A stretch of DNA of 64,000 nt from Curvibacter soli (GTDB taxonomy: Bacteria > Pseudomonadota > Gammaproteobacteria > Burkholderiales > Burkholderiaceae_C). The translations under genes and the position numbers were made by a program. Shown here piece by piece: positions 19,818 through 35,548 of the stretch (its first letter is position 1; each line of letters starts with the position of its first letter). The notes beneath the pieces are model-generated. The model made no database searches. It was not told where the DNA came from and worked only from the letters and a program-made list of their open reading frames with translations. The stretch is taken from the NCBI RefSeq assembly GCF_029211125.1, contig NZ_JARGEN010000021.1, positions 1-64,000 of the forward strand. Reading direction: 5' to 3'.

Positions 19818-20195
19818 GCCGCGCGCGCCTACCATCGCGTCGTGCACGGGAATCCACCAGAGATTGCTTTCTGACGTACCTGAATTTTCTGAGCTGCCTG
19901 CGCTGCAGCGAACCGTTGGCCCATCCCAACTCGCGCAGTTCTTCTTTTTTGAGCTGCCTGCACGGCAGTGAACTCAAAGGCATCGGCTGCCTGCGCGGCA
20001 GCGAACAGCTTGCAGAGTGCCAAGGTATTGGAGAAGACTTTCTGAGCTGCCTGCGCGGCAGCGAACCTTGCCGCAGCGCGGCGATTTCTCGGGTGACTTT
20101 TCTGAGCTGCCTGCGCGGCAGCGAACCTTGCGCTCGATGTATGCCCGCGCAATCCGAATTTCTGAGCTGCCTGCGCGGCAGCGAACGTTTTTCAA

Positions 20196-20371
20196 CCTAA
20201 ATCCGGCAGTTGAACCAACCGAAAAACTGAAAAAACCCAATATCCATGCGGGTTTCCAAAGACTTCGCGTGACTGCAGAGCAGTTCCAAATGGGTGAGTC
20301 TGGAAAGCATGGAAACTCAATGCGTGACAGGCACTTGCTCGAATTTTGGGGATTCAACTGCCGGAAATAGG
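20196..20371. mobile_element. 176-bp MITE inserted in a CRISPR spacer
   Basis: Terminal inverted repeats: CCTAAATCCGGCAGTTGAA on the left, CCTATTTCCGGCAGTTGAA on the right when inverted. It is flanked by the 5-bp direct repeat TTCAA (20191-20195 and 20372-20376). Removing the element and one TTCAA leaves 9 + 23 = 32 nt, the normal spacer length. A second copy with about six differences is at 47721-47896. No transposase is encoded. Ends starting CCTA with a 5-bp duplication recall IS1380-type elements, but the parent is not identified. Confidence 0.88.
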
Positions 20372-20576
20372 TTCAAATGCTTGAGCGTAGGCACCGGAAT
20401 TTCTGAGCTGCCTGCGCGGCAGCGAACAGACAGTAGAAGTTTTCGCTTGGGATGAAGATTTTCTGAGCTGCCTGCGCGGCAGCGAACTGCCCGTGCGGCA
20501 GCGAACTGCCCGTGCCGGAGGCCATGACCGCAGAGCATTTTCTGAGCTGCCTGCGCGGCAGCGAACTTGTCGTATG

Positions 20577-20817
20577 AGGGACTTGCAGAATTCGGATGAA
20601 TTTTTTAAACGCGCCAACGTGCGCTCAAAATAGACTGCGACCCCTCCCCCTACGCTGAACATGAAAAACGCCTCAAAACGCACGAGATCGCCTCCAAATC
20701 AATTTGCCCAAAATGGCCTCTAAAAATTCTCGTCAAAATTCCTCAAATCTTAGAAATTTTGCTTAAATTTTAAGCAAATTTAGACGAATTTCGGCAAAAA
20801 TAATTCTGCAAGTCCCT
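20577..20817. mobile_element. 241-bp AT-rich MITE-like element in a CRISPR spacer
   Basis: The left end AGGGACTTGCAGAATT and right end AATTCTGCAAGTCCCT are perfect inverted repeats. CGTATG flanks both sides (20571-20576 and 20818-20823). Removing the element and one CGTATG leaves 10 + 22 = 32 nt, a normal spacer. The interior is far more AT-rich than its surroundings, with a palindrome TTGCTTAAATTTTAAGCAA. No coding capacity. Confidence 0.82.
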
Positions 20818-23800
20818 CGTATGTGTAGCCCATTGCCGCCTGCCATTTCTGAGCTGCCTGCGCGGCAGCGAACGTGCAGTTCACGGAGAAGTTCGGCACG
20901 CCGTGTTTCTGAGCTGCCTGCGCGGCAGCGAACGAACCGCGCGGTGCTCGGCACGGGCCGATAGATTTCTGAGCTGCCTGCGCGGCAGCGAACTGCACGA
21001 CACCCGAGAGAGCCACGTTCTCGGCTTTCTGAGCTGCCTGCGCGGCAGCGAACCGGGAGTTACGGTTATCGGACGTTCCTCTGTATTTCTGAGCTGCCTG
21101 CGCGGCAGCGAACACAACCGACACGACCCATGCCTTGCAGATAGATTTCTGAGCTGCCTGCGCGGCAGCGAACCGGGCCGTCGAGCCCAGCACGGCGTCC
21201 TGCAATTTCTGAGCTGCCTGCGCGGCAGCGAACATGGAGGTGTTGTGGAGCCATGCGCTGCCGCTTTTCTGAGCTGCCTGCGCGGCAGCGAACCAAATGC
21301 AGGCCCGCCGGCAGAATCTGCGCTCTTTCTGAGCTGCCTGCGCGGCAGCGAACGCGGCAAAGCTGGCGCTGGCAACGCGCGGGAATTTCTGAGCTGCCTG
21401 CGCGGCAGCGAACGTGTTGCTGAGATGGAGACGCATCGGCATCGTTTTCTGAGCTGCCTGCGCGGCAGCGAACTAATCACTTGAGCTCGAGCTTTTTGAG
21501 GGACTTTTCTGAGCTGCCTGCGCGGCAGCGAACGGCAAACAGCCGCGCGGCGCCGGCAAGCCGGATTTCTGAGCTGCCTGCGCGGCAGCGAACGGCGGAG
21601 GCCGTCGCGTCCGCTGGACGAACAATTTCTGAGCTGCCTGCGCGGCAGCGAACGCTATTTATAGGGCTAAGGCAGGTGAGGCATGGTTTCTGAGCTGCCT
21701 GCGCGGCAGCGAACTCGTACTACAGCTTGGCCTAACAATGGCCCATTTTCTGAGCTGCCTGCGCGGCAGCGAACTGTGCGCTGGCTCTTGCTCACGGCCA
21801 GCACCATTTCTGAGCTGCCTGCGCGGCAGCGAACAAACGCCCTTTCCAGATGCAGAGGTCGAGAAATTTCTGAGCTGCCTGCGCGGCAGCGAACTAGCTG
21901 AAGAATCACCTGGTTGATGCTCCAGATTTCTGAGCTGCCTGCGCGGCAGCGAACGTGTTGCTGAGATGGAGACGCATCGGCATCGTTTTCTGAGCTGCCT
22001 GCGCGGCAGCGAACACCACGAGCTCGACGTCGTGCGGACGCCACCATTTCTGAGCTGCCTGCGCGGCAGCGAACAAATCAAAACAGTTGCGCGAGTAAGT
22101 GTCGGCTTTCTGAGCTGCCTGCGCGGCAGCGAACGGCTGATTGACGCGAACGTGCGCGGCCTTGTCTTTCTGAGCTGCCTGCGCGGCAGCGAACCGCTGG
22201 TGGTACGAGTGGCCCGAGACAAATGATTTCTGAGCTGCCTGCGCGGCAGCGAACACGGTGCTCCTTCTCCGATTCGTGTCCCCATTTTTCTGAGCTGCCT
22301 GCGCGGCAGCGAACCGTCTTCGGCGTCATGCGCACAGGCTTTGTGTTTTCTGAGCTGCCTGCGCGGCAGCGAACGTTCCTGCGCTCGGCCAAGTAATGGC
22401 CTATCATTTCTGAGCTGCCTGCGCGGCAGCGAACGTACTCCAGCCACTCGGCGGAGCCTTGAACAATTTCTGAGCTGCCTGCGCGGCAGCGAACGTGATC
22501 AGCGCATCCGGGGTCTTGCGTCCACTTTTCTGAGCTGCCTGCGCGGCAGCGAACGCGGACAGTACGGAATGCGTATGGCCCGTGCTTTTCTGAGCTGCCT
22601 GCGCGGCAGCGAACTGGACCGTGGACTGGCTCACCCCCGCCTTCTTTTTCTGAGCTGCCTGCGCGGCAGCGAACTCTTCCAGGATGGAAAGGTGCGCGGT
22701 GTCCTTTTTCTGAGCTGCCTGCGCGGCAGCGAACCGGTGATGATGTCCTGCGACTCTTCGGCCGATTTTCTGAGCTGCCTGCGCGGCAGCGAACGTATCC
22801 GTGACGCTGGACACATCGACCACAAATTTCTGAGCTGCCTGCGCGGCAGCGAACTTGACGACAGGGCCAGCAATGAGCGCGAGAAATTTCTGAGCTGCCT
22901 GCGCGGCAGCGAACACCACGCCGACCTCACGCAAAGCGTCGAACATTTTCTGAGCTGCCTGCGCGGCAGCGAACCATTGACATCTATCTCACGACGCAGG
23001 CCCCGCTTTCTGAGCTGCCTGCGCGGCAGCGAACTCGAGCTCGTGACGTCCGACCGCTCTCGACCTTTTCTGAGCTGCCTGCGCGGCAGCGAACGCCACG
23101 AGGCCGGCAGCGGGCGGACACCGCGATTTCTGAGCTGCCTGCGCGGCAGCGAACATGAAACGTTTGCTTTGCAGACTACAGGGCATTTCTGAGCTGCCTG
23201 CGCGGCAGCGAACAGCTTCACCCACGCAAATCAGCGACTGATCATTTTCTGAGCTGCCTGCGCGGCAGCGAACCATGTTCCTGACTCCTAAAAATGTTCC
23301 TGACATTTCTGAGCTGCCTGCGCGGCAGCGAACAATTGACAGTAATGTTCGTGCTCTTGCGGGTATTTCTGAGCTGCCTGCGCGGCAGCGAACAATCCGT
23401 AGTAGCAGGGTTCTCATCGCAAGCATTTCTGAGCTGCCTGCGCGGCAGCGAACTCGATGGTCATTGCGAGTGCTTCAACGGCCCATTTCTGAGCTGCCTG
23501 CGCGGCAGCGAACTTCGGCGGTGAAGTCTTGCAGTTGCTTGCAATTTTCTGAGCTGCCTGCGCGGCAGCGAACAATTGCCCGCTCCTGTTGATTCTGCTC
23601 GATCTTTTCTGAGCTGCCTGCGCGGCAGCGAACGACTTCTGTAGCTTCGCGTTCACTGGCCAAACTTTCTGAGCTGCCTGCGCGGCAGCGAACTCGAACT
23701 CGTGACGTCCGACCGCTGCCGATCTTTTCTGAGCTGCCTGCGCGGCAGCGAACTGGCCGGCGGACGCCGCGAGGCCGGGGCAGCCTTTCTGAGCTGCCTG

Positions 23801-26096
23801 CGCGGCAGCGAACATGGCTCCCCGTCCCCTCTGCGTGTCCCCATTTTTCTGAGCTGCCTGCGCGGCAGCGAACTCGAGCTGGTGGCGTCGGTCTGTCGCC
23901 GATCTTTTCTGAGCTGCCTGCGCGGCAGCGAACGTCCGCCGTCGTCCTGGTCGGCGTCCCCTTGATTTCTGAGCTGCCTGCGCGGCAGCGAACCCGAAAG
24001 CGCCCCGAGCACCGGGAGCCTTCAACTTTCTGAGCTGCCTGCGCGGCAGCGAACAGCTCCACTTCCTCCGGGTCGAGCAGGAGATATTTCTGAGCTGCCT
24101 GCGCGGCAGCGAACAAGCCGCGCATCTTCGAGCGGTACTCCTGGCTTTTCTGAGCTGCCTGCGCGGCAGCGAACCTGGCGATCGTCAACCTCTGGAGCAT
24201 CAACTATTTCTGAGCTGCCTGCGCGGCAGCGAACGCGGCTCTCATGGAAGTCGTTATCAAGGGAAATTTCTGAGCTGCCTGCGCGGCAGCGAACGATCAA
24301 CCAGCGCGGCAGTCTTGCCCGCGCCAGTTTCTGAGCTGCCTGCGCGGCAGCGAACGCCAACCCGATAGCAACGCCCCAGACGTCAGCTTTCTGAGCTGCC
24401 TGCGCGGCAGCGAACTCTTCGTGATCTTGGTATTCTTGGTCGCTGGTTTTCTGAGCTGCCTGCGCGGCAGCGAACTGGTTTCTCGTGCTCTTGTTGCGCT
24501 CGGGTTTTTTCTGAGCTGCCTGCGCGGCAGCGAACTTCCTTCAAGCTGCCCGCGAGTTGGTGCACCTTTTCTGAGCTGCCTGCGCGGCAGCGAACGCTCG
24601 ACCTCAAGGGGACGCCGGCCAGGACGATTTCTGAGCTGCCTGCGCGGCAGCGAACTGTTTCGTCGCAGCCTGGTTGCGCTGGGTTTTTTTCTGAGCTGCC
24701 TGCGCGGCAGCGAACTTCGGCGGTGAAGTCTTGCAGTTGCTTGCAATTTTCTGAGCTGCCTGCGCGGCAGCGAACCGCCCGCGCTGCATCAAGATCAGAA
24801 GCAACTTTTTCTGAGCTGCCTGCGCGGCAGCGAACTCGAGCTGGTGGCGTCGGTCTGTCGCCGGCCTTTTCTGAGCTGCCTGCGCGGCAGCGAACCACTC
24901 GGAGGAACTCTCGCAGCAGGCCCACGATTTCTGAGCTGCCTGCGCGGCAGCGAACATCTTCTGCGACACCGGCAACGAGCACGAAGATTTCTGAGCTGCC
25001 TGCGCGGCAGCGAACTTTCAAACATCATCCGCAGCAGACTCGCGTCATTTCTGAGCTGCCTGCGCGGCAGCGAACATTGCCGCGCGCAATGACTTGTTCG
25101 TTATCTGTTTCTGAGCTGCCTGCGCGGCAGCGAACCTGGCGCGCAGGCGCACGATCTTGATGTCGAGTTTCTGAGCTGCCTGCGCGGCAGCGAACGCGAA
25201 CGCCAGCATGGCCAGCGGACGCCTCGATTTCTGAGCTGCCTGCGCGGCAGCGAACAAGTTTGTGGGGCTCGATGAAGCAGCACTGCATTTCTGAGCTGCC
25301 TGCGCGGCAGCGAACACAAACCCACGCCACGCCTTCATGCGCGTCGCTTTCTGAGCTGCCTGCGCGGCAGCGAACGCCAAATTTTTCCGTTGAGCGCTGC
25401 ATGACTTTTTCTGAGCTGCCTGCGCGGCAGCGAACAGAGGAAGGAAGCTCTTCTTTCCCTTCTTCATTTTCTGAGCTGCCTGCGCGGCAGCGAACGACGA
25501 CATCCGAATCAGTCTTGCCAAGGACCATTTCTGAGCTGCCTGCGCGGCAGCGAACCTCCAGATGTGGCTGGACAATGAGCCCGATGTTTTCTGAGCTGCC
25601 TGCGCGGCAGCGAACGACAAGTTTCATGTCGTCAAGATGGCGAACAATTTCTGAGCTGCCTGCGCGGCAGCGAACACGAAATATCGTGCTGTCCACGACG
25701 CGCATGAATTTCTGAGCTGCCTGCGCGGCAGCGAACTTGGAGCACAAGGATTGCCTGGCCATCGTCAATTTCTGAGCTGCCTGCGCGGCAGCGAACGGGA
25801 AAATGTTGCAGATAAGTGCTGGCGGCCTTTTCTGAGCTGCCTGCGCGGCAGCGAACCAGAAGACATAGGACTGATAGCAAGCGCTGGTTTTCTGAGCTGC
25901 CTGCGCGGCAGCGAACCGTCTTCGGCGTCATGCGCACAGGCTTTGTGTTTTCTGAGCTGCCTGCGCGGCAGCGAACATCAGTGCCGAGCGCGAGCTGGCC
26001 TTTCGGGCTTTCTGAGCTGCCTGCGCGGCAGCGAACTTGAGCTCGTAGTGTTCGCCCGCCGTCGTCCTTTTCTGAGCTGCCTGCGCGGCAGCGAAC

Positions 26097-27939: not shown

Positions 27940-29007
27940 TCAGTCATAGGCATAGACATCGCTTTCGTCTTCATCCTCCCATTCGCCTGGGGCGTCAGGC
28001 GCTGCATCGGCGGCGTAGCCGCTGCGGCAGCGGTACAGGCCTTGGGCGGCGTCGGTTTCGGCATGCCACAGCAGTTGTTCCAGGCTGCGCAGGCGGTGGG
28101 GGCTGATCCACTCGCCCAGCGAATAGACCGATTCGACGAAGCGCAGCGGCGTGGCGGCGTCGCGGGCATTGGCCACGGCGCCGGCCGCATGTTGGCCCGA
28201 CAGCGCGGCGTAGCCCACCGGAATGGGAACGATCCAGCCGCTGCCCCGTGGGCGCAAGGGGTCGTGCCAGCGCACCTTGCCGTCTGCGGCTTGAGGCTGG
28301 TCGGTCTGGGGACGCTCGGCCTCGTAGTTAAAGCGCGAGGCGTGCAGCCAGGCATCGAGCAGAGTGGCCTGCGGAGTGTGTTCGCGCAGCACGCGCAGCC
28401 GCTCGGCCAGCAGGTCGTCGCGCCCCACCAGCGCATAGCCGGGCAGCCATTGGCGGCGCCATTCGCGCAGCCGTGTGGCGCGTTGCTGCGTGTCATCGGG
28501 CAGCACGGCAATCCAGGGGCGCACGCGCCTGCCGAGTGCTGCGCGCGTTGGCAACAGGCTACCGCCGGCCATGCGCATCTGCGCCAGCACGCGGCTTGCG
28601 TCATCGGCCCATTGCTGCAGGGTGTCGGGCGCGTCCTGCACTAGGCGGGGCAGCGCGCCGGGAGCGCGTTTTTCCGAAACGCTGAAGACCAGCGTGATGT
28701 CAAGATGGATGCGCCCTTCCTCGACGATGGCGGCCGTGCTGCCGTCCTTGTCCACCGGGTTGCGGGTGAGGTTGAAGCTGTGCACATAGCCTTGCGTCGT
28801 CTGCTCCTGATAGTGGTGGCAGACCACGCCGACGCCATGCAAGTGCAAGGGGATGCCCGCCTGGTTCAGCTTGCGCTCCAGCGCCCACATCAGGCCGGTG
28901 AGGGCGGTGATGGCAGGGAAGCCGTGGGTGAGCGGGCTGGAGATGGCGTTGGCGTTCTGCACGCGCAGGTGGGGGAAGACCAGGATGGCCTGGGGGTGTT
29001 CGCTCAT
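27940..29007 (-). CDS. cas5f: Cas5f (Csy2), Cascade subunit
   Basis: 355 residues from the ATG at 29007, which overlaps the cas8f stop (ATGA). N-terminus AILVFPHLRVQNANAISSPLTHGFPAIT is typical Csy2. With Cas8f it holds the crRNA 5-prime handle and contributes to the tail of the complex. The last 30 residues are acidic (EWEDEDESD), which is unusual but terminal. An open frame upstream of the ATG is the shadow of cas8f. Confidence 0.96.
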   Translation of the reverse strand: MSEHPQAILVFPHLRVQNANAISSPLTHGFPAITALTGLMWALERKLNQAGIPLHLHGVGVVCHHYQEQTTQGYVHSFNLTRNPVDKDGSTAAIVEEGRIHLDITLVFSVSEKRAPGALPRLVQDAPDTLQQWADDASRVLAQMRMAGGSLLPTRAALGRRVRPWIAVLPDDTQQRATRLREWRRQWLPGYALVGRDDLLAERLRVLREHTPQATLLDAWLHASRFNYEAERPQTDQPQAADGKVRWHDPLRPRGSGWIVPIPVGYAALSGQHAAGAVANARDAATPLRFVESVYSLGEWISPHRLRSLEQLLWHAETDAAQGLYRCRSGYAADAAPDAPGEWEDEDESDVYAYD

Positions 29008-30317
29008 TGCGCAGCCTCCAGTTCCGCCTGCAGCACTTTTTTCCATTCACGCGCTTCAACTTCGCTCACGGGGAGCCCGGTCTTCCCGAGTTGCTGGTTC
29101 AGCCAGTTGGCAAAACGCTTGCCCACCTGCGCGGGCCAGTCCATCCATTGCCATTGGCTGGCAAACGCGCCTTCGCTCGGCAATGTGGCGCGCAATGGGT
29201 CCAGCCACAGTTGCTCTTCTAGCGCTAGGCGGTCGAAGCGGTTTTCCGGATCGGTGCCGGGGCGCGTCCAGCCTGCCGGCATGGCTTGCTGCAACTCCCC
29301 GGCCATCGATACCAGTTCATCGAGCAGCATGTCGATGTAGATCACTCGGCGCTCGCGGGTTTTCAGATTCGGTTCGGGGTCGGATGCGAGGAACTCTCGC
29401 AGCCCGCGCACGGCCTTGCGCACATCGGGGCGGGCGATGAACAGCCGGTCGAACACCGATTCGGCATGCGCGGGCAAGCGCCGCGCGCTGACCGCCCACG
29501 CGGGCGGCAGCGATGACAGCAGGTAGTTCACGCCACCGCGTTCGCTGTTGAGCTGGCTGATGTTCTGCGGCTTCGTTCCACCCATCTTCTGCACGGCCAG
29601 ATCGGGGTAGTCGTGGAGTACGCCGTCGTGCGCCTTGCGATCACGCCGAGCCTGGCGGGCGGCCTTGTTGGCTTCGTCGAAGCGATCTTCCTGAATCTGC
29701 GCATGCACCGCGTGGGCCAGCGATGTGGCAAACAGCGGCGCCAGCAGTTCGTAATCGCCATCGGCGCAGGCATCGCTGCCTGTCAGCCAGTACAACTGCT
29801 TGGCCCTTGTGTGCGAACTGGGGGGGGCAGCGCGCGGCTGCGTCAGGCCGACAAAGGCGTCGCGCAGCGATCGGGCCTGGGCGGGGTTATTGTGCAGGGC
29901 CTGAATGGCGGCTTCGTCCTCCGCTAGCAGTGCAGCCAGCAGGCTGCGGCCATCAAGCTCCAGCTTCAGGAATTTATAGACATCCAGCGCCCCGGCAGAG
30001 CCGACCACGTCGCCCGTGAACGCTGCGCCCAGCGCGTGGCTGCCCAGCACGCCGAGGCTGGGCAGACTGTTTGGCTCCACATACAGATTGGTGCCACGTG
30101 CGTCGGGGTGGATGGGTTTGAGGGAGTGGGTGACGGCCTGGATTTGCGTCACGCGCCGTGCGGCATCGTCAATCCAGGCATCGAACTGGTGCTGTGCCAG
30201 TAACTCCGCGCGTTTGGGGTCGTCGTCCTTGAGCTTGTCGAGCTTGGCCTGCAGGCGTTCCTGGATGAAAACATCAATAGCAGACCGCCAGAACGCTGGG
30301 TTGGTGGTTGGCTGCAT
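29004..30317 (-). CDS. cas8f: Cas8f (Csy1), large Cascade subunit, PAM reader
   Basis: 437 residues. Recognises the CC PAM and, with Cas5f, the crRNA handle. The ATG at 30317 is chosen because a strong Shine-Dalgarno (GGGAGGA) lies just before it. Family blocks: WRSAIDVFIQERLQAKLDKL at the start, THSLKPIHPDARGTNLYV near residue 80, GTKPQNISQLNSERGG near residue 235 and the C-terminal WMDWPAQVGKRFANWLN. It heads the effector operon cas8f-cas5f-cas7f-cas6f. Its promoter overlaps the target of a crRNA-like guide (30343-30374). Confidence 0.96.
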   Translation of the reverse strand: MQPTTNPAFWRSAIDVFIQERLQAKLDKLKDDDPKRAELLAQHQFDAWIDDAARRVTQIQAVTHSLKPIHPDARGTNLYVEPNSLPSLGVLGSHALGAAFTGDVVGSAGALDVYKFLKLELDGRSLLAALLAEDEAAIQALHNNPAQARSLRDAFVGLTQPRAAPPSSHTRAKQLYWLTGSDACADGDYELLAPLFATSLAHAVHAQIQEDRFDEANKAARQARRDRKAHDGVLHDYPDLAVQKMGGTKPQNISQLNSERGGVNYLLSSLPPAWAVSARRLPAHAESVFDRLFIARPDVRKAVRGLREFLASDPEPNLKTRERRVIYIDMLLDELVSMAGELQQAMPAGWTRPGTDPENRFDRLALEEQLWLDPLRATLPSEGAFASQWQWMDWPAQVGKRFANWLNQQLGKTGLPVSEVEAREWKKVLQAELEAAQ

Positions 30318-30340: not shown

Positions 30341-30374
30341 CCATGATACTTGGAATCTTATATCATGTCATCCT
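30341..30374 (+). promoter_or_regulatory. cas8f promoter and partial protospacer for the crRNA-like guide
   Basis: Plus strand: CC at 30341-30342, then ATGATACTTGGAATCT. The guide segment at 30396 reads ATGATCCTTGGGATCT. The first 16 positions match except 6 and 12, the flipped-out positions in Cascade, and CC is the I-F PAM. On the minus strand the same DNA carries TGATATAAG (30365-30357), an extended -10 (TGN-TATAAG) about 40 bp before the cas8f ATG. Cascade bound here would cover the promoter. Repression is inferred. Confidence 0.75.
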
Positions 30375-30451
30375 GCCGTGGAGGTAGCTCAGCAAATGAT
30401 CCTTGGGATCTGTCTTCCGTGTTCCTTTTTCTGCCGCATAGGCAGATTTTT
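30368..30451 (+). ncRNA. crRNA-like guide (degenerate mini-CRISPR, CreR/CreA type)
   Basis: First pseudo-repeat 30368-30395: CTGCCG, GGAGG and TAGCTCAGCAA align with positions 6-28 of the array repeat, 19 of 23 identical, in transcribed orientation; the handle is CTCAGCAA against CTCAGAAA. The stem keeps pairing through one G-U. Next is a ~30-nt spacer-like segment from 30396, then a second pseudo-repeat stem CTGCCGCATAGGCAG (30431-30445, 13 of 15 identical) followed by ATTTTT, which may also end the transcript. Cas6f processing would give a guide aimed at the cas8f promoter. No expression evidence is available. Confidence 0.72.
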
Positions 30452-30470
30452 GTATTGACATAGTGAATAC
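30452..30470. promoter_or_regulatory. Dyad before brnT, possible antitoxin operator
   Basis: GTATTGACATAGTGAATAC is symmetric at 14 of 19 positions (GTATT/AATAC arms, inner AC/GT). It contains TTGACA, a perfect -35 hexamer, with TAATAT 16 bp later. That -10 would place the start of transcription after the brnT ATG, so the real promoter is uncertain. Type II antitoxins usually repress from such sites. Confidence 0.45.
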
Positions 30471-30480
30471 GAGAATTAAT

Positions 30481-30783
30481 ATGAACTCTGCAGATGTTCA
30501 CTACGAAGTCAACGGCGACCTGTTCGTCTGGAGCCGTGTCAAGGCCCAACTGAACTGGCGCAAGCATGGCGTGCGCTTCGAGGAGGTGGCCACCGTATTC
30601 GGCGACCCGTACTTCGTACTCACGGATGCGTCGCGCAACGACGAGGCGCGCGATGCGGCAATTGGTTTCGATGTCCATGCGCGGCTGCTATTCGTGGTGC
30701 ACGTCGAGATTGAGGACACGTGTATCCGAATCATTTCTGCGCGGCGAGCGGAACCCCGCGAAGAGGCTCTTTATGCTGACTGA
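30481..30783 (+). CDS. brnT: BrnT-family ribonuclease toxin
   Basis: 100 residues. The core FVWSRVKAQLNWRKHGVRFEEVATVF, the RLLFVVHVEIE strand and the C-terminal RIISARRAEPREEALY are the BrnT signature (RelE-like fold, RNase toxin). The ATG at 30481 is preferred over the GTG at 30463 because it is closer to the conserved core. Its last 11 bp overlap the next gene, the usual toxin-first order of BrnTA. It lies between cas2-3 and cas8f, on the opposite strand to all cas genes, directly after the crRNA-like guide. It could stabilise the locus; this is inference. Confidence 0.85.
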   Translation: MNSADVHYEVNGDLFVWSRVKAQLNWRKHGVRFEEVATVFGDPYFVLTDASRNDEARDAAIGFDVHARLLFVVHVEIEDTCIRIISARRAEPREEALYAD

Positions 30784-31057
30784 CCGTTTGAAGACCCGTT
30801 TGACGAAGGATCGACCGATGACGTCGATCACGCTGCGCATTCCCGTGGACGTGGTCGAGTCGATGAAGACCATCGCGCCGCAGCGCGGCTTCTCTGGCTA
30901 TCAATCCCTGCTCAAGTCCTACCTGAGCGAGGGGCTGCGCCGTGACGAGCAGCAATTTGCCGCCGCGACGCATGCGCGCCTGATCGAGGCGCTCAAGCGC
31001 CACGGGGTGCCGGTAGAGGTGATCGAGCAGGCAGAGCGCGACGTGGCGGCGGCTTGA
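30773..31057 (+). CDS. BrnA-like antitoxin, ribbon-helix-helix
   Basis: 94 residues. The segment MTSITLRIPVDVVESMKTIA followed by RGFSGYQSLLKSYLSEGLRR is a ribbon-helix-helix DNA-binding fold like those of BrnA/CopG antitoxins paired with BrnT. The start at 30773 overlaps the toxin gene by 11 bp, giving translational coupling. The stop lies 1 bp from the cas2-3 stop on the other strand, so the two genes are tail to tail with no room for separate terminators. It should neutralise BrnT and probably represses the pair. Confidence 0.8.
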   Translation: MLTDRLKTRLTKDRPMTSITLRIPVDVVESMKTIAPQRGFSGYQSLLKSYLSEGLRRDEQQFAAATHARLIEALKRHGVPVEVIEQAERDVAAA

Positions 31058-31058
31058 C

Positions 31059-34000
31059 TCAGCGTGTAGGAGTGAAGCCTAGCGCTTCATGAAATAGCCA
31101 GCCATCCCTGCTTTCAGGCAGGCTGGCGGTCGCATACCGCCCGGCGCATGCGCTCAGTGATTGCTCCTGACTCTGCGCCAGCCTCATCAGCTCCTGCAAC
31201 AAATCAATCTGCGCCCACGGCGTAAGGTTGGCGTTCGTGTTGAGCTTCAGCCGCACGGCGTGGCGCTGGTTTTCGTCCACGCACACGTAGAGTTTTTCTC
31301 CGCGCCGGTTGCCGTCATCCACGCGGTGCAGCAGCAGGCGCGCTTCATCCTCATCCGGCAAAAATGCCACGTCCACACGTGGTTGCCGGTCATGGCGGAA
31401 GCGCTGGAACTGCGGCAGCAGGCCGGTGAGCCACAGGTGTTCGGGGCTGGCCCAGTGCAGGCTTGCGGCACGGGTCACGGACGTCGTGCCGTGGCTGTCT
31501 GGGGGGCGGGGCAGCATGGCGTCGTGCATACGGGCGTGTTCCAGGTCGGCGAGGTGCTGGCCGGGGTTGAAGTGTGCCTTGGCGACGGCGATGCGTGCCC
31601 GGGCATCCACTGGCCACGCCGATGCGCCGTGGGTATGCTTGGCAAGCAGTTCCTGCAACTGGTGCGAGCGCAGGTGGAAGTGACGCGCGCTGTCGCGTTG
31701 GTCTTGCGTCTGGTCCATCTCGAAACCCGGCTTGCAGAAGGCGGCGCCGCCGGGCTTTTCGTAGGCTCGCAAGTTGCTGTCCATCACCGTCATATTCACG
31801 CCGGCAACCGCGCCGGGGCGGTGGCGGCGCACGCGGCCTGCCAATTGAATGAGCGAGCGCATCGATGACGGCTCGACCACGGCCCAGTCGTAATCGTGGT
31901 CGCGGCCCACTTCGGTAACGGGTGAGCCAAGCACGATGAACAACTGGTTGGACTGCGGACTGGCGTCGAGTAGTGCCCGAATCGCGGGTTGCTGTAGGGC
32001 CGCATCGCTGCCATCTGCCGCCGGGCGGCGGTTGAGCACCGTGTCCAGTTGCCGCTCGATGGCCGAGCGCGCCAGCAGCGGAAACTGCGAGTGGTAGACG
32101 CACAGGTGCACGCGCACGTCGGCTGCGGGTGCGCCTTGCGTGTACATCGCCAGTGCCACGTCGAACAGTGGCCCGATGTTGGCCATGCGGATCAGGCCGA
32201 AGCTCACGCGCTTTCCGCTGCCGGGGTCGATGGTGTGGTTCTGCGGCATCTGGTGCAGGCGCCATGCCTGCTCCAGCGCCAGACGGGCAAAGTCGGCGCG
32301 GCGCTCAGCTTTATCCATGCCATGCCATTTGTCGGGTAAAGCGGCGATCTGCGCGCGGCGGCGCACTTCGGCCTTGGCGAGTTGGGCCACGCGCTTTTGC
32401 ACGAAGCCTTCATGGGTGGCGCGAAAGTCCGAGCCATCGGCGCAGTCGGCGGCGCTCTGGTGGAACTCGTCCATCCACAGGCAGCAGATGTTGACCCGCT
32501 CGCCGGGCCGCTCGCTGCGATGCCGTTGGAACACGTCGCGGCCTGCGCGGTAAGCCAGGAACAGCCCTTCCACCAGCGCGGGCGGCAGGGTTGCCGACGA
32601 CAGCAGCACGCGGCTACCGAGCAGTCCGGCCCAATGCACCAGCCGCGTGAGCGCAGGCAGGTCTGCCATGTCGAAATCGTCCGGCTCATCGAGCACCAGA
32701 TCGCCCGTGAGCAGGCGCAGCATGGGCGCGATCTGGCGGCCTCCGCGCAGGCTTTCAGTGGCGGGCGTCAGGTGATCGACAGTGCAGACCAACAACGGCG
32801 CGGCCAGCAGGCGGCGCGCCTGTGCGTCGCCCATCAGGCGTTGCAGCAGCGGGTGCTGGTCGTTGCCCTCGAACAGCACCTGCCCGCCTTCGTCGAGCAG
32901 CGCCTGGCGCGATGCGGAGCCGGTGGCCTCAGCCTCGTGCTCCCAATGCTCGAACAGCGCGCGGCTGGCAGCGGCGCCGACCTGGATGGCGAGTTGCTCT
33001 TCGTTCAGGCCCAACTCGTTTTGATATACGCGCCCCATTTGCAGTGTCAACGTGCGCAGGCCCACAGCAAACGCGCAGCGCAGGCCCGTGGCCGGGTCGG
33101 CCAGCGCGTTCATGACGCGCGCGTTGCCCAGCGTCTTGCCGCAGCCCGTGGATGCCATGTTGACGATGAAGGTGCCCTGGCTGCCAGCGTGCTGGCGCAC
33201 GCTGGCAGCCAGATCGGCGGCCTTGTCCTGCCACTGAAAGCGCGCATCGCGGCTGCGCTTTTTCAGCGCCTTGTGGTTTTGCAGCGCCGGCAGGCTGCGC
33301 GCCAGCGTGGGCAGCGAGCGCGCGACCAGTGTGGCGTGGGCCTGCACGCCCAGCAGGTGTTCATCCAGGGTTTGATGAAAAATTGGCTTTTCGCTCTTAT
33401 CTGGCGGGCGCTGATAGCTATCGTTTTTGATGGTGTTGGCGTAGAGCGGATAGCCGGCATTGACGTAAGGCTTGCGCTGCCCATCGTCCCGGACGCTGGA
33501 GTAGTGGTGGTCGGCCAGCATCAGGCACAGGCGGGTCACGTGCATGGCGAACGGATCGTGCAGCACGGCGCCCTGCGCAGTGGATTCCAGCAGCTTGCGT
33601 GCATAGCGGGCGGCCTGCTTTCGCCACGGCACGGTCGTCACCGGCAGCCCATGGGGAAAGCGCCAATGGGACTGTACCGTGACGTTGTCCGCAGACTCCT
33701 CGCGCGGCTCGTTCCAGTCGGCGCTGAGGCGTTGCAGCAGCCCTTGCAGATCGGCAAGGTTCACGAAAGCGGGGTGCGCCCCGAAGCTCCGCCAGCGGCT
33801 GTGGGGCAGGTCGATGTCCGCATCGCTGCTGCCATCCTTGTGCAGCACCGGCATGCAGGGCAAGCGATGGTGCGTGAGCACCAGCCAGGCCACGGCCTGC
33901 GCCAGCGGCGGCATGGCGGTAAAGGGCAGGTGGTAGCGGGCCTGCGGCTCGTCGATGCCGTCGCGCAGCAAGCGGCCGTTGGAACAGTCCAGCCATTGCG

Positions 34001-34553
34001 CCTCGAAAGCGGTTGCATCCATGGCTTCATCGGCCAGCCGTTGCAGCCAGCCCGCATCGTCCTCGCCGCCCACGAAGGCCTGGAACAGCCGTACCGACAC
34101 CCATTCGTGCCGGTAGTGGTTGCGCTGGCGCAGGCTGGGGTTTTTCAGGCGGTTCTGGAAGGCGGCCGTCGCCTTGCCCAGGTCGTGCAGCAGCGCGGCA
34201 AGGGCGCCCAGCGCCGTCATCAGCGGCAGGTGGTGCCAGGCGCTTTCGTCGCCGGCGCGCAGCACGTTGCTGGCCGTGGTGTTGGTGGGCGTCGCGCCCT
34301 CGGCGTTGAACTGGCGGCCATCGCCCACCACCCACAGCAGCTCAGTGTGGTCCTTGGCGCGTATCCAGTGGCAGGCCACGGCGGTGTTCTTGCGGGCGGT
34401 CTGGCGCAGCAGCTTGCGCACGGTGTCCAGCCCGGCCTGGGTGATGGGCGTCTGCCAGGTGCGGTCGCCGCAGCGCTCGGCGAACTGGTCGAGGATGCGG
34501 CGCGTTTCGGTCAGCGCGCGCTTGCTGCATTGGGAGACGAACAGGACGTTCAA
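31059..34553 (-). CDS. cas3: Cas2-3 fusion, nuclease-helicase
   Basis: 1164 residues from a TTG at 34553 that overlaps the cas1 stop (TTGA), with GGGAG before it. N-terminal Cas2 domain (NVLFVSQCSKRALTETRRI, residues 2-90). HD nuclease domain with LHDLGK at residues 122-127. SF2 helicase: Walker A STGCGKT near 467-473, Walker B-like VLDEPDD near 618, SSATLP, and motif VI AGRVRRHRPG. Cas2 joins Cas1 for spacer integration; Cas3 is recruited to Cascade-bound DNA and degrades it. A dispersed repeat is inserted in frame (33379-33429) without breaking the gene. All catalytic motifs seen are intact. Confidence 0.96.
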   Translation of the reverse strand: MNVLFVSQCSKRALTETRRILDQFAERCGDRTWQTPITQAGLDTVRKLLRQTARKNTAVACHWIRAKDHTELLWVVGDGRQFNAEGATPTNTTASNVLRAGDESAWHHLPLMTALGALAALLHDLGKATAAFQNRLKNPSLRQRNHYRHEWVSVRLFQAFVGGEDDAGWLQRLADEAMDATAFEAQWLDCSNGRLLRDGIDEPQARYHLPFTAMPPLAQAVAWLVLTHHRLPCMPVLHKDGSSDADIDLPHSRWRSFGAHPAFVNLADLQGLLQRLSADWNEPREESADNVTVQSHWRFPHGLPVTTVPWRKQAARYARKLLESTAQGAVLHDPFAMHVTRLCLMLADHHYSSVRDDGQRKPYVNAGYPLYANTIKNDSYQRPPDKSEKPIFHQTLDEHLLGVQAHATLVARSLPTLARSLPALQNHKALKKRSRDARFQWQDKAADLAASVRQHAGSQGTFIVNMASTGCGKTLGNARVMNALADPATGLRCAFAVGLRTLTLQMGRVYQNELGLNEEQLAIQVGAAASRALFEHWEHEAEATGSASRQALLDEGGQVLFEGNDQHPLLQRLMGDAQARRLLAAPLLVCTVDHLTPATESLRGGRQIAPMLRLLTGDLVLDEPDDFDMADLPALTRLVHWAGLLGSRVLLSSATLPPALVEGLFLAYRAGRDVFQRHRSERPGERVNICCLWMDEFHQSAADCADGSDFRATHEGFVQKRVAQLAKAEVRRRAQIAALPDKWHGMDKAERRADFARLALEQAWRLHQMPQNHTIDPGSGKRVSFGLIRMANIGPLFDVALAMYTQGAPAADVRVHLCVYHSQFPLLARSAIERQLDTVLNRRPAADGSDAALQQPAIRALLDASPQSNQLFIVLGSPVTEVGRDHDYDWAVVEPSSMRSLIQLAGRVRRHRPGAVAGVNMTVMDSNLRAYEKPGGAAFCKPGFEMDQTQDQRDSARHFHLRSHQLQELLAKHTHGASAWPVDARARIAVAKAHFNPGQHLADLEHARMHDAMLPRPPDSHGTTSVTRAASLHWASPEHLWLTGLLPQFQRFRHDRQPRVDVAFLPDEDEARLLLHRVDDGNRRGEKLYVCVDENQRHAVRLKLNTNANLTPWAQIDLLQELMRLAQSQEQSLSACAGRYATASLPESRDGWLFHEALGFTPTR
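33379..33429 (-). repeat. Dispersed ~55-bp repeat, copy 5, in frame in cas2-3
   Basis: Plus strand shows AAATTGGC, CGCTCTTATCTGG, GGCGCTGATAGCTATCG and TTTTTGAT in family order (inverted). It encodes about 17 residues (around NDSYQRPPDKSEKPIFH) in the HD-to-helicase region of Cas2-3. Confidence 0.6.
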
Positions 34554-35548
34554 GCCACGCTCCCGGGCGCTGGGTGATTCGCCATGCGCGCGGTGTCCAG
34601 GGCGATGCGCTTGAGCGTGTCGATGATGAAGTCCAGCGATTCGCTGCGCGTGAGCGCCTCGATGCACTGGTGGCGAAACTGCTGCTCGTCGTCGCCGCGC
34701 ATGGCCGACAGGAACGCCTGCGGCAGGATGGCGGCGTCTTTGACCAGATCGGCCGCGTCGAACACCAGCCCGCCGCGCCGCGTCTTGCCGTGCAGCACCG
34801 CCAGCCCGTGCGGCAGGCCCAGCACCCAGGTGGCCGTTGCGCCCAAGCCGTAGGCCAGGTAGTTGCCGTGGTCGAGAAAACGGTTGGCCGGGTCAGTGCC
34901 CGCGCCGCGCTTGGCGCGGGTGAATTCGCCATAGCCTGTGGCATCCACGGCGAGTTTGAACAACGCCTTGGTCAGCCGGGCCTCGTCGGTCAGCAGCGCG
35001 GTCACATCGGGCGCGTTGGCGATCAGCGGGGTGAACTGCGCCGTGAGCGCCTGCAGCCGCGCCACATCGACTGCAAAGCCCGCTTCGCGCAAGCCGCGGG
35101 TGTTCCATTCGGCCAGCAGGCGCTGCATGCGCCAGGTCTGCAACTGTTTGGCGGCGTGCAGGCGCAGCTCGTCGTCGAACCAGAACCGCGCCCAGGCCTG
35201 AAGGTACTCGGTGGGGCGGTATTCGCTCTGCGGTGCGAGCCAGGCTACGTCCACATCGACCTCATTCGCGCTGAACAGCGGTGTGCCGCCACCACCGCAA
35301 AAGCCCACCAGCACGCCCGCTTTGGAGAGTTCGCGCATGGCGGCCTGGGTGATGGAGGTGCCCGTGCCCAGCAGGATGCTGGTCGTGTTGGCGATGGGAA
35401 TATTCCAGTAAAGGCTGCGCTTGCCCGCATCGGTTACGTATTCGACCCTGCCGCCGCTGACCAGGACGCGGCAATGCTCCAGGTAGTACAGGTTGGCGCG
35501 CTTGGAATGGAGGATGGCTTTGAGGTCGGATGCGGCAATGTCGTCCAT
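34550..35548 (-). CDS. cas1: Cas1, spacer integrase (type I-F)
   Basis: 332 residues. N-terminal beta domain (LYYLEHCRVLVSGGRVEYV) and C-terminal helical catalytic domain. Metal-site residues lie in DEARLTKALFKLA (Glu), LHGKTRRGGLVFDAADLVKD (His and Asp). GGGGTPLFSANEVD is typical of the I-F type. It forms the integration complex with the Cas2 part of Cas2-3. Translation of cas2-3 is coupled to its stop. Only 46 bp separate its start from the upstream aldolase gene, so the promoter must overlap that gene's end. Confidence 0.96.
   Translation of the reverse strand: MDDIAASDLKAILHSKRANLYYLEHCRVLVSGGRVEYVTDAGKRSLYWNIPIANTTSILLGTGTSITQAAMRELSKAGVLVGFCGGGGTPLFSANEVDVDVAWLAPQSEYRPTEYLQAWARFWFDDELRLHAAKQLQTWRMQRLLAEWNTRGLREAGFAVDVARLQALTAQFTPLIANAPDVTALLTDEARLTKALFKLAVDATGYGEFTRAKRGAGTDPANRFLDHGNYLAYGLGATATWVLGLPHGLAVLHGKTRRGGLVFDAADLVKDAAILPQAFLSAMRGDDEQQFRHQCIEALTRSESLDFIIDTLKRIALDTARMANHPAPGSVA

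What the first reader, a model, noticed from the sequence alone, without database searches (positions are those of the whole stretch)
30341..30451. A crRNA-like guide sits between cas8f and brnT and aims Cascade at the cas8f promoter
Seen directly: two degenerate I-F repeats (19/23 and 13/15 identity over the aligned parts, both in transcribed orientation) enclose a ~30-nt segment beginning ATGATCCTTGGGATCT. Fifty-odd bases away, directly after CC, the DNA reads ATGATACTTGGAATCT. The 16-base match fails only at positions 6 and 12, exactly the bases Cascade flips out, and the PAM is right for I-F. The target covers an extended -10 (TGATATAAG) of the cas8f operon. Partial complementarity would allow binding without cleavage. 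This is the layout of Cas-regulating RNAs (CreR) and CreA guides, so the operon should be repressed when Cascade is plentiful and released when it is blocked or depleted.
Basis: partly seen in the sequence, partly recalled or inferred. Interest (0 to 1): 0.95.

Follow-up and report, generated by a model that had tools for sequence, protein, structure and literature searches.

The report
Self-regulating guide RNA beside CRISPR genes
A tiny degenerate CRISPR unit next to a bacterial CRISPR-Cas operon very probably makes a guide RNA that sends the CRISPR complex to the operon's own promoter and turns it down; this is a fresh example of a known kind of feedback, sitting unusually next to a toxin-antitoxin pair.

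Summary
Two degenerate I-F repeats (30368-30395, 30426-30453) enclose a 30-nt guide (30396-30425). Its first 16 nt match a CC-flanked site (30343-30358) except at positions 6 and 12; none of 200,000 shuffled guides did as well. The protospacer covers the best promoter-like site before cas8f (ATGACA-17-TATCAT).

Decisive evidence is comparative. Such guide/target pairs occur in 34 of 62 distinct relatives and 10 of 29 further same-class loci. Guides differ between loci, yet each fits its own target. Positions 6, 12 and 18, not used for detection, match at about chance (5, 12, 13 of 45).

Best reading: a type I-F cas-regulating RNA (CreR) that represses cas8f and probably itself. CreR, and an experimentally shown I-F CreA in the same cas3-csy1 gap, are published: a new member of a known kind.

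Less expected: 10 of 10 loci with a full type II TA in this gap carry the guide, and 0 of 10 have the RNA-toxin-like mini-ORF found in 16 of 25 guide-bearing loci without TA. No RNA data exist.

The parts
30341..30342 (+). CC, I-F PAM of the regulatory target
   Evidence: sequence
30343..30372 (+). protospacer for the 30-nt guide (to 30374 for a canonical 32 nt); 30343-30358 match guide positions 1-16 except 6 and 12
30343..30371 (-). cas8f promoter-like site ATGACA-17-TATCAT (10 of 12), covered by the protospacer
   Evidence: geometry compared over 45 loci
30368..30395 (+). psiR1, degenerate I-F repeat; hairpin 30373-30387, 8-nt handle CTCAGCAA 30388-30395
30396..30425 (+). guide (spacer-like) of the CreR-like RNA; predicted mature RNA 30388-30445
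   Evidence: the ends are inferred from I-F crRNA processing (recalled)
30426..30453 (+). psiR2; hairpin 30431-30445 followed by ATTTTTG, so also a terminator-like site
29004..30317 (-). cas8f (csy1), the gene whose promoter is targeted
   Evidence: PF09611 E 9.8e-135
27940..29046 (-). cas5f (csy2)
   Evidence: PF09614
26805..27836 (-). cas7f (csy3)
   Evidence: PF09615
26226..26798 (-). cas6f (csy4), expected processor of the guide
   Evidence: PF09618
20039..26096 (-). canonical I-F array, 94 exact repeats
30455..30482 (+). promoter-like site TTGACA-16-TAATAT before brnT
30481..30783 (+). brnT, cargo toxin gene downstream of psiR2 on the same strand (alternative start 30463)
   Evidence: PF04365 E 2.1e-23 for 30463-30780
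30773..31057 (+). brnA-like CopG antitoxin gene
   Evidence: PF12441 26.4 bits, below its cut-off of 28
31059..34667 (-). cas3 (Cas2/3 fusion)
   Evidence: PF21384, PF22590, PF21802
34550..35548 (-). cas1
   Evidence: PF01867

Best explanation
The stretch 30341-30453 is a type I-F cas-regulating RNA gene (CreR) together with its target. The RNA is transcribed rightward, Cas6f cuts both degenerate hairpins, and the Csy (I-F Cascade) complex takes up the guide. Through a CC PAM and about 14 pairs in the first 16 nt it binds the cas8f promoter; the short R-loop does not license Cas2/3. The bound complex covers -35 to -10 and shuts the cas8-cas5-cas7-cas6 operon down when free Cascade is plentiful. 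Competing crRNAs, anti-CRISPRs or loss of Cascade lift the block. Because the target lies between the two divergent genes and reaches into psiR1, binding should also limit the guide's own transcription. Shown here: anatomy, PAM, guide-target match, its co-variation in relatives, indifference at every sixth base, overlap with a promoter-like site. Inferred: transcription, processing, binding, repression.
For: Guide/target match beyond chance. Same arrangement in 34 of 62 distinct relatives (35 of 63 loci with the window) and 10 of 29 same-class loci. Before any strand filter, all 31 family-set hits of score 14 or more and all 11 class-set hits of 13 or more lay antisense to cas8f, and in all 45 accepted pairs the target lies between guide and cas8f. 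Co-variation: own 13.8, cross 5.1; near relatives L034 and L036 change positions 10-11 (GG to AG, GA) in guide and target alike. Positions 6, 12 and 18, unused in detection, match in 5, 12 and 13 of 45 against 44 of 45 at position 7. Promoter geometry, noticed on the same data: -10 abutting the PAM in 9 of 45 loci (background mean 2%), -35 abutting the PAM in 18 of 45 (background mean 7%, highest 22%). Effector genes match their Pfam models nearly end to end. Precedents: the I-F CreA of Acinetobacter in the same gap, 17 pairs of 20 with mismatches at 6, 11 and 18, rescue by compensatory mutation (PMC10097628; sections 6 and 8 read, passages of section 9); truncated I-F1 R-loops bind but do not trigger Cas2/3 (PMC7296934, abstract).
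Against: No transcript evidence. No promoter for the guide RNA reached 9 of 12 in the scan. psiR1 and the whole RNA do not fold better than shuffles (z -0.32 and -0.57); only the psiR2 hairpin does (z -3.37). The handle differs from the array's at one base. 28 of 63 distinct loci lack a detectable guide, so it is dispensable. Five accepted relatives (L015, L034, L036, L047, L050; scores 11-13) lie within the range of the shuffles and rest on strand, handle and position. Positions 1-5 are uninformative because a run of 5 was required, and the other scored positions are raised by selection on the total. Taking only the single best promoter-like site per locus, its -10 overlapped the matched 16 nt in 5 of 34 loci, little above random placement (11%).
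Confidence: 0.86

Rival explanations
1. CreTA-type module: the guide is an antitoxin (CreA) that keeps a toxin silent, with BrnT as the toxin or with a hidden RNA toxin between target and cas8f.
For: brnTA lies directly downstream on the guide's strand; an I-F CreTA sits in the same gap in Acinetobacter; 16 of 25 guide-bearing relatives without a TA carry an SD plus mini-ORF between target and cas8f, 11 with AGA or AGG codons and three with ATA ATA.
Against: Only 25 nt separate PAM and cas8f here, with no mini-ORF. In the window the only other site of the guide is an AC-flanked 5-base seed in the same promoter region; none lies at brnT. In 10 further TA or antitoxin-only loci no comparable site exists at the TA genes, only weak ones (score at most 11 of 17, for example AC-flanked seeds near the HigA start of L036 and the HicA start of L047). 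brnT has its own promoter-like site and psiR2 looks like a terminator.
Confidence: 0.08
2. Relic: a decayed mini-array whose spacer was taken from the neighbouring DNA and no longer does anything.
For: Repeats are degenerate and the match covers only 16 nt.
Against: In the window the mismatches within the first 16 nt sit only at positions 6 and 12, and over 45 loci these are the positions that fail; guides and targets change together; decay would scatter mismatches.
Confidence: 0.03
3. The two similar stretches are direct-repeat operators of a protein regulator.
For: Two similar 16-mers 53 nt apart next to a promoter.
Against: In each of 45 loci one copy follows a repeat-like handle and the other follows CC (both were detection criteria, so this part is by construction); the sequence differs between loci; the indifferent positions have a period of six, which was not put in as a requirement on those positions.
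Confidence: 0.02
4. Sponge: the RNA mainly soaks up Cas6f or Cascade, like phage Racr RNAs, and the target match is secondary.
For: Solitary repeat mimics can do this (PMC10651486, abstract start and passages).
Against: Co-varying guide/target match with PAM and promoter overlap.
Confidence: 0.01

Closest known systems
CreR (cas-regulating RNA): Liu et al. 2023 Cell Host Microbe, recalled and not held; described in reviews PMC12737573 and PMC13131331 (passages)
   Same: Repeat-like elements around a guide with limited complementarity to a cas promoter; autorepression expected.
   Different: PMC13131331 names I-B, I-E and V-A; here it is I-F, and a type II TA lies next to it.
Standalone mini-arrays of Shmakov et al. 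2023 NAR 51:8150 (citation seen, text not held; content recalled: includes an I-F1 mini-array tested as a regulatory guide, targets in cas8 promoters and TA cargo)
   Same: Same subtype, same kind of target, same kind of cargo, as recalled.
   Different: Could not be compared locus by locus.
I-F CreTA of Acinetobacter (PMC10097628, abstract, sections 6 and 8, passages of 9)
   Same: Same cas3-csy1 gap, psiR1-guide-psiR2, CC PAM, 17 pairs of 20 with mismatches at 6, 11 and 18.
   Different: There the target lies downstream of the promoter of a 33-bp mini-ORF RNA toxin; here the target covers the cas8f promoter and there is no RNA toxin.
CrePA (CreA guide and protein toxin CreP; PMC12737573 passages)
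   Same: Guide RNA and protein toxin near CRISPR-Cas.
   Different: CreP is described as a toxin, typically with a KilA-N domain, whose promoter the guide targets; here BrnT comes with its own antitoxin and no guide target was found at it.

Membership tests
CreR | crRNA-like gene with repeat-like elements that the linked Cas6 can process | tested here: inconclusive
   Sequence and hairpins present; processing not testable.
CreR | guide with limited PAM-proximal complementarity to a PAM-flanked site in the promoter of the linked cas operon | tested here: met
   14 of 16, CC PAM, promoter-like site 30371-30343; co-variation. That the site is the real promoter is a consensus match only.
CreR | Cas-dependent repression of cas transcription | not testable with these tools
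   needs a reporter experiment
CreR | generally not coupled to a toxin gene (PMC12737573 passage) | tested here: inconclusive
   brnTA is adjacent, but no guide target at brnT; read-through from the guide's promoter is not excluded.
I-F CreTA | guide target at the promoter or start of an RNA-toxin mini-ORF | tested here: not met
   25 nt between PAM and cas8f, no mini-ORF.
CrePA | guide target in the promoter of a protein toxin gene | tested here: not met
   no site with a run of 5 or a score of 11 at or near brnT
canonical CRISPR array | near-identical repeats | tested here: not met
   psiR1 has 9 of 28 mismatches to the array repeat

The most novel reading that the evidence does not exclude
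The cas3-cas8f gap of type I-F loci is a slot in which one guide RNA is paired with interchangeable guard toxins. In one form the guide silences an RNA toxin (CreT-like mini-ORF with tandem rare codons). In the other, seen here, the RNA toxin is gone, the guide silences cas8f and its own promoter, and a type II TA (BrnTA here; HigBA or HicAB-like elsewhere) sits behind the guide gene on the same strand, so that read-through from the guide's promoter makes the TA respond to loss of Cascade. This would be a protein-toxin addiction module driven from a CreR leader.
Probability: 0.15. Interest if true: 0.78.

Novelty: new member of a known kind. Interest (0 to 1): 0.5.

Why it matters
It shows that guide-based autorepression of cas genes is probably common in I-F systems well beyond one lineage, gives a natural record of which guide positions matter (every sixth base is ignored; pairing fades after about position 17), and suggests two fixed placements of the Cascade edge against the promoter (-10 or -35). 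It also makes testable whether RNA-toxin addiction and type II TA addiction replace one another beside the same guide.

Tried and rejected
A first scan used loci that were not all oriented and missed guides on minus-strand loci; orientation was then fixed by tblastn and the scan repeated, which is the one reported. A direct DNA search of the 181-nt region matched 1 of 399 family genomes, the own one. A second target of the guide at TA promoters was sought; only weak sites were found. A deliberate mismatch at position 6 was considered: 5 of 45 looks low against 25% (binomial 0.018) but is expected from base composition (permutation 0.37), so rejected. BrnT as a conserved CRISPR cargo was tested: 99 of 399 family genomes (own included) carry a BrnT match; comparing the listed coordinates by eye, none but the window's lies in a cas8f locus (its match list was cut).

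Rows dropped and thresholds: L035 (duplicate of L006); L060 (score 13, plus strand, no repeat). The family set was accepted at score 11 or more on the divergent strand, the class set at 13 or more with a hairpin; so class-level L094 (score 14, hairpin test failed, may be real), L102 and L103 (score 12, target on the wrong side of the guide) are left out. Of 32 class-level genomes with Csy1, 29 loci besides the own one were examined; G582 and G726 were not fetched. The family sample is 42 loci of 399 genomes (12 of them fetched) plus 22 named contigs.

Limits of the TA counts: the search used only BrnTA, HigBA and HicAB queries, so other TA families would be missed. The association of TA and guide (10 of 10 against 25 of 53, Fisher 0.0015) ignores relatedness. 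The exclusion of TA and mini-ORF (0 of 10 against 11 of 25 with AGA or AGG codons, Fisher 0.015) is confounded with the shorter distance from PAM to cas8f in TA loci. Shuffles of the same stretches gave an AGA/AGG mini-ORF in 0 to 5% of cases in the family set. HicAB is a weak name: the HicA candidate had no Pfam match and HicB lay below its cut-off.

Full report
What is there. The window holds a type I-F locus on the minus strand: cas1, cas2/3, then cas8f-cas5f-cas7f-cas6f and an array of 94 exact repeats. Between cas3 and cas8f, on the plus strand, lies a brnT-brnA pair (BrnT PF04365, E 2e-23; the antitoxin matches CopG just below its cut-off). In the 163 nt between cas8f and brnT (145 with the alternative brnT start) sit the features of the finding, confirmed by reading the sequence: CC at 30341-30342, the target from 30343, psiR1 30368-30395, the guide 30396-30425 and psiR2 30426-30453.

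Is it more than chance? The guide matches the target at 14 of 16 positions; the two failures are positions 6 and 12. Shuffling the guide 200,000 times against the 78 CC-flanked sites nearby gave 13 of 14 scored positions five times and 14 never. In a scan of 64 loci (63 relatives and the window; one relative is a duplicate, so 62 distinct), 31 of 64 scored at least 14 of 17, against 0 of 640 dinucleotide shuffles (two reached 13) and 0 of 64 coding controls (maximum 11).

What relatives say. With score at least 11 and the divergent strand, 35 of 63 distinct loci carry a guide/target pair. A same-class sample gave 10 of 29 further loci with score at least 13 and a hairpin. The strand was a criterion for the accepted sets, but before it was applied all 31 hits of at least 14 and all 11 class-level hits of at least 13 already lay antisense to cas8f, and in all 45 accepted pairs the target lies between guide and cas8f, which was not required. 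Guides differ: cross-matching a guide with another locus's target gives 5.1 of 15 scored positions on average, own pairs 13.8. Between the window and two near relatives (L034, L036) positions 10-11 read GG, AG and GA in guide and target alike. Positions 6, 12 and 18 were left out of detection and match in 5, 12 and 13 of 45, about what unconstrained bases give, whereas position 7 matches in 44 and position 13 in 41 of 45 (the latter are raised by selection on the total). Matching falls to 22 and 19 of 45 at positions 19 and 20. This is the pattern expected if the I-F complex reads the guide with every sixth base flipped out (recalled structural knowledge), and it speaks against operator-repeat and relic readings.

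Where it binds. On the cas8f strand the scan finds ATGACA-17-TATCAT at 30371-30343 (10 of 12 matches). The -10 ends exactly at the PAM edge and the protospacer covers -35 to -10. Over 45 loci the same placement (-10 abutting the PAM) holds in 9 (background mean 2%), and a second placement, the -35 directly beyond the PAM, in 18 (background mean 7%, highest single window 22%). These offsets were noticed on the same data. A test with only the best promoter-like site per locus was weaker: the -10 overlapped the matched 16 nt in 5 of 34 loci against 11% for random placement, and any overlap occurred in 12 of 34 against 27%.

How it most likely works. Transcription from left to right, two Cas6f cuts, loading into Csy, PAM-dependent binding of the cas8f promoter and steric repression. 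The I-F CreA of Acinetobacter, in the same cas3-csy1 gap, is the experimental precedent: 17 of 20 guide bases pair (not 6, 11, 18), repression in a reporter was about seven-fold and was lost without Csy4, and compensatory changes at positions 5, 7 and 15 restored function; a construct with psiR2 replaced was used (PMC10097628, sections 6 and 8 read and passages of section 9). I-F1 complexes with truncated R-loops bind DNA but do not trigger Cas2/3 (PMC7296934, abstract). That crRNAs and Acr proteins relieve CreR repression is taken from a review (PMC12737573 passages). The protospacer also reaches 5 nt into psiR1 (7 nt if 32 nt long), so the guide's own promoter is probably blocked too; that promoter was not found by the scan.

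CreR or CreTA? In the 25 guide-bearing loci without a full TA the PAM lies 43-322 nt before the first cas8f match. In 16 of these 25 a strong SD with a 9-14-codon ORF lies between target and cas8f, 11 with AGA or AGG codons (8 of them with two), and three (L043, L044, L048) with ATA ATA. These look like CreT RNA toxins, which in haloarchaea sequester rare arginine or isoleucine tRNAs (PMC9458426, passage). Three of 10 class-level loci have such an ORF. The window has 25 nt there and no such ORF, so its guide most likely regulates cas8f itself: CreR.

The TA neighbour. All 10 distinct loci in which a full BrnTA (1), HigBA (7) or HicAB-like (2) pair was found in the gap carry the guide, against 25 of 53 others (Fisher 0.0015), and none of the 10 has a mini-ORF. 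The TA lies behind the guide on the guide's strand in all 10. Against a direct link: no comparable guide target at the TA genes, a promoter-like site before brnT and a terminator-like psiR2 in the window, and 8 antitoxin-only loci of which 7 lack a guide (L033, L041, L042, L045, L046, L049, L052; L034 has one). In L032 HigB is 91-93% identical to that of L004-L006 while cas8f is 51-54%, so guide, target and TA seem to have stayed with the cas3 side while cas8f was exchanged.

Novelty. CreR and mini-arrays in type I, including I-F1 (Shmakov 2023, recalled, text not held), are known, so the guide is a new member of a known kind. I did not see the two promoter placements or the RNA-toxin / type II TA alternation in the abstracts, passages and sections that I read, but the two most relevant papers were not available.

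Noticed in passing
L018, L020, L024, L051, L054, L058 and others, between target and cas8f: CreT-like mini-ORFs with a strong SD and tandem AGA AGA or AGG AGA codons (ATA ATA in L043, L044, L048) in same-family and Halomonas-group I-F loci: probable I-F CreTA modules.
   Followed up: partly
L032 (HigBA locus): HigB 91-93% identical to that of L004-L006 but cas8f only 51-54%: recombination between guide/target and cas8f.
   Followed up: partly
L041, L042, L045, L046, L049, L052: A lone HicB-like antitoxin gene in the short cas3-cas8f gap without a detected guide; possibly a protein alternative for cas regulation.
   Followed up: no
G000 contig C69 7237-7253 (L068 1501-1517): Another genomic site of the guide, CC-flanked: 15 of 17 scored positions (the cas8f site has 14) but with a seed mismatch at position 7, about 28 nt upstream of a Y1 (IS200-like) transposase gene; no promoter-like site found there. 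By a rough hand estimate about 0.03 such sites are expected by chance.
   Followed up: partly
20187-20399 and 20567-20845: Two repeat-free inserts in the CRISPR array with inverted ends (TCCGGCAGTTGAA and GGGACTTGCAGAATT), MITE-like; part of the first recurs elsewhere in the window.
   Followed up: no
array 20039-26096: Three spacers occur twice exactly and three further pairs differ at 2 to 8 positions.
   Followed up: no
30455-30482: The promoter-like site before brnT overlaps the likely start codon (30481), so the real brnT start or promoter is uncertain.
   Followed up: no
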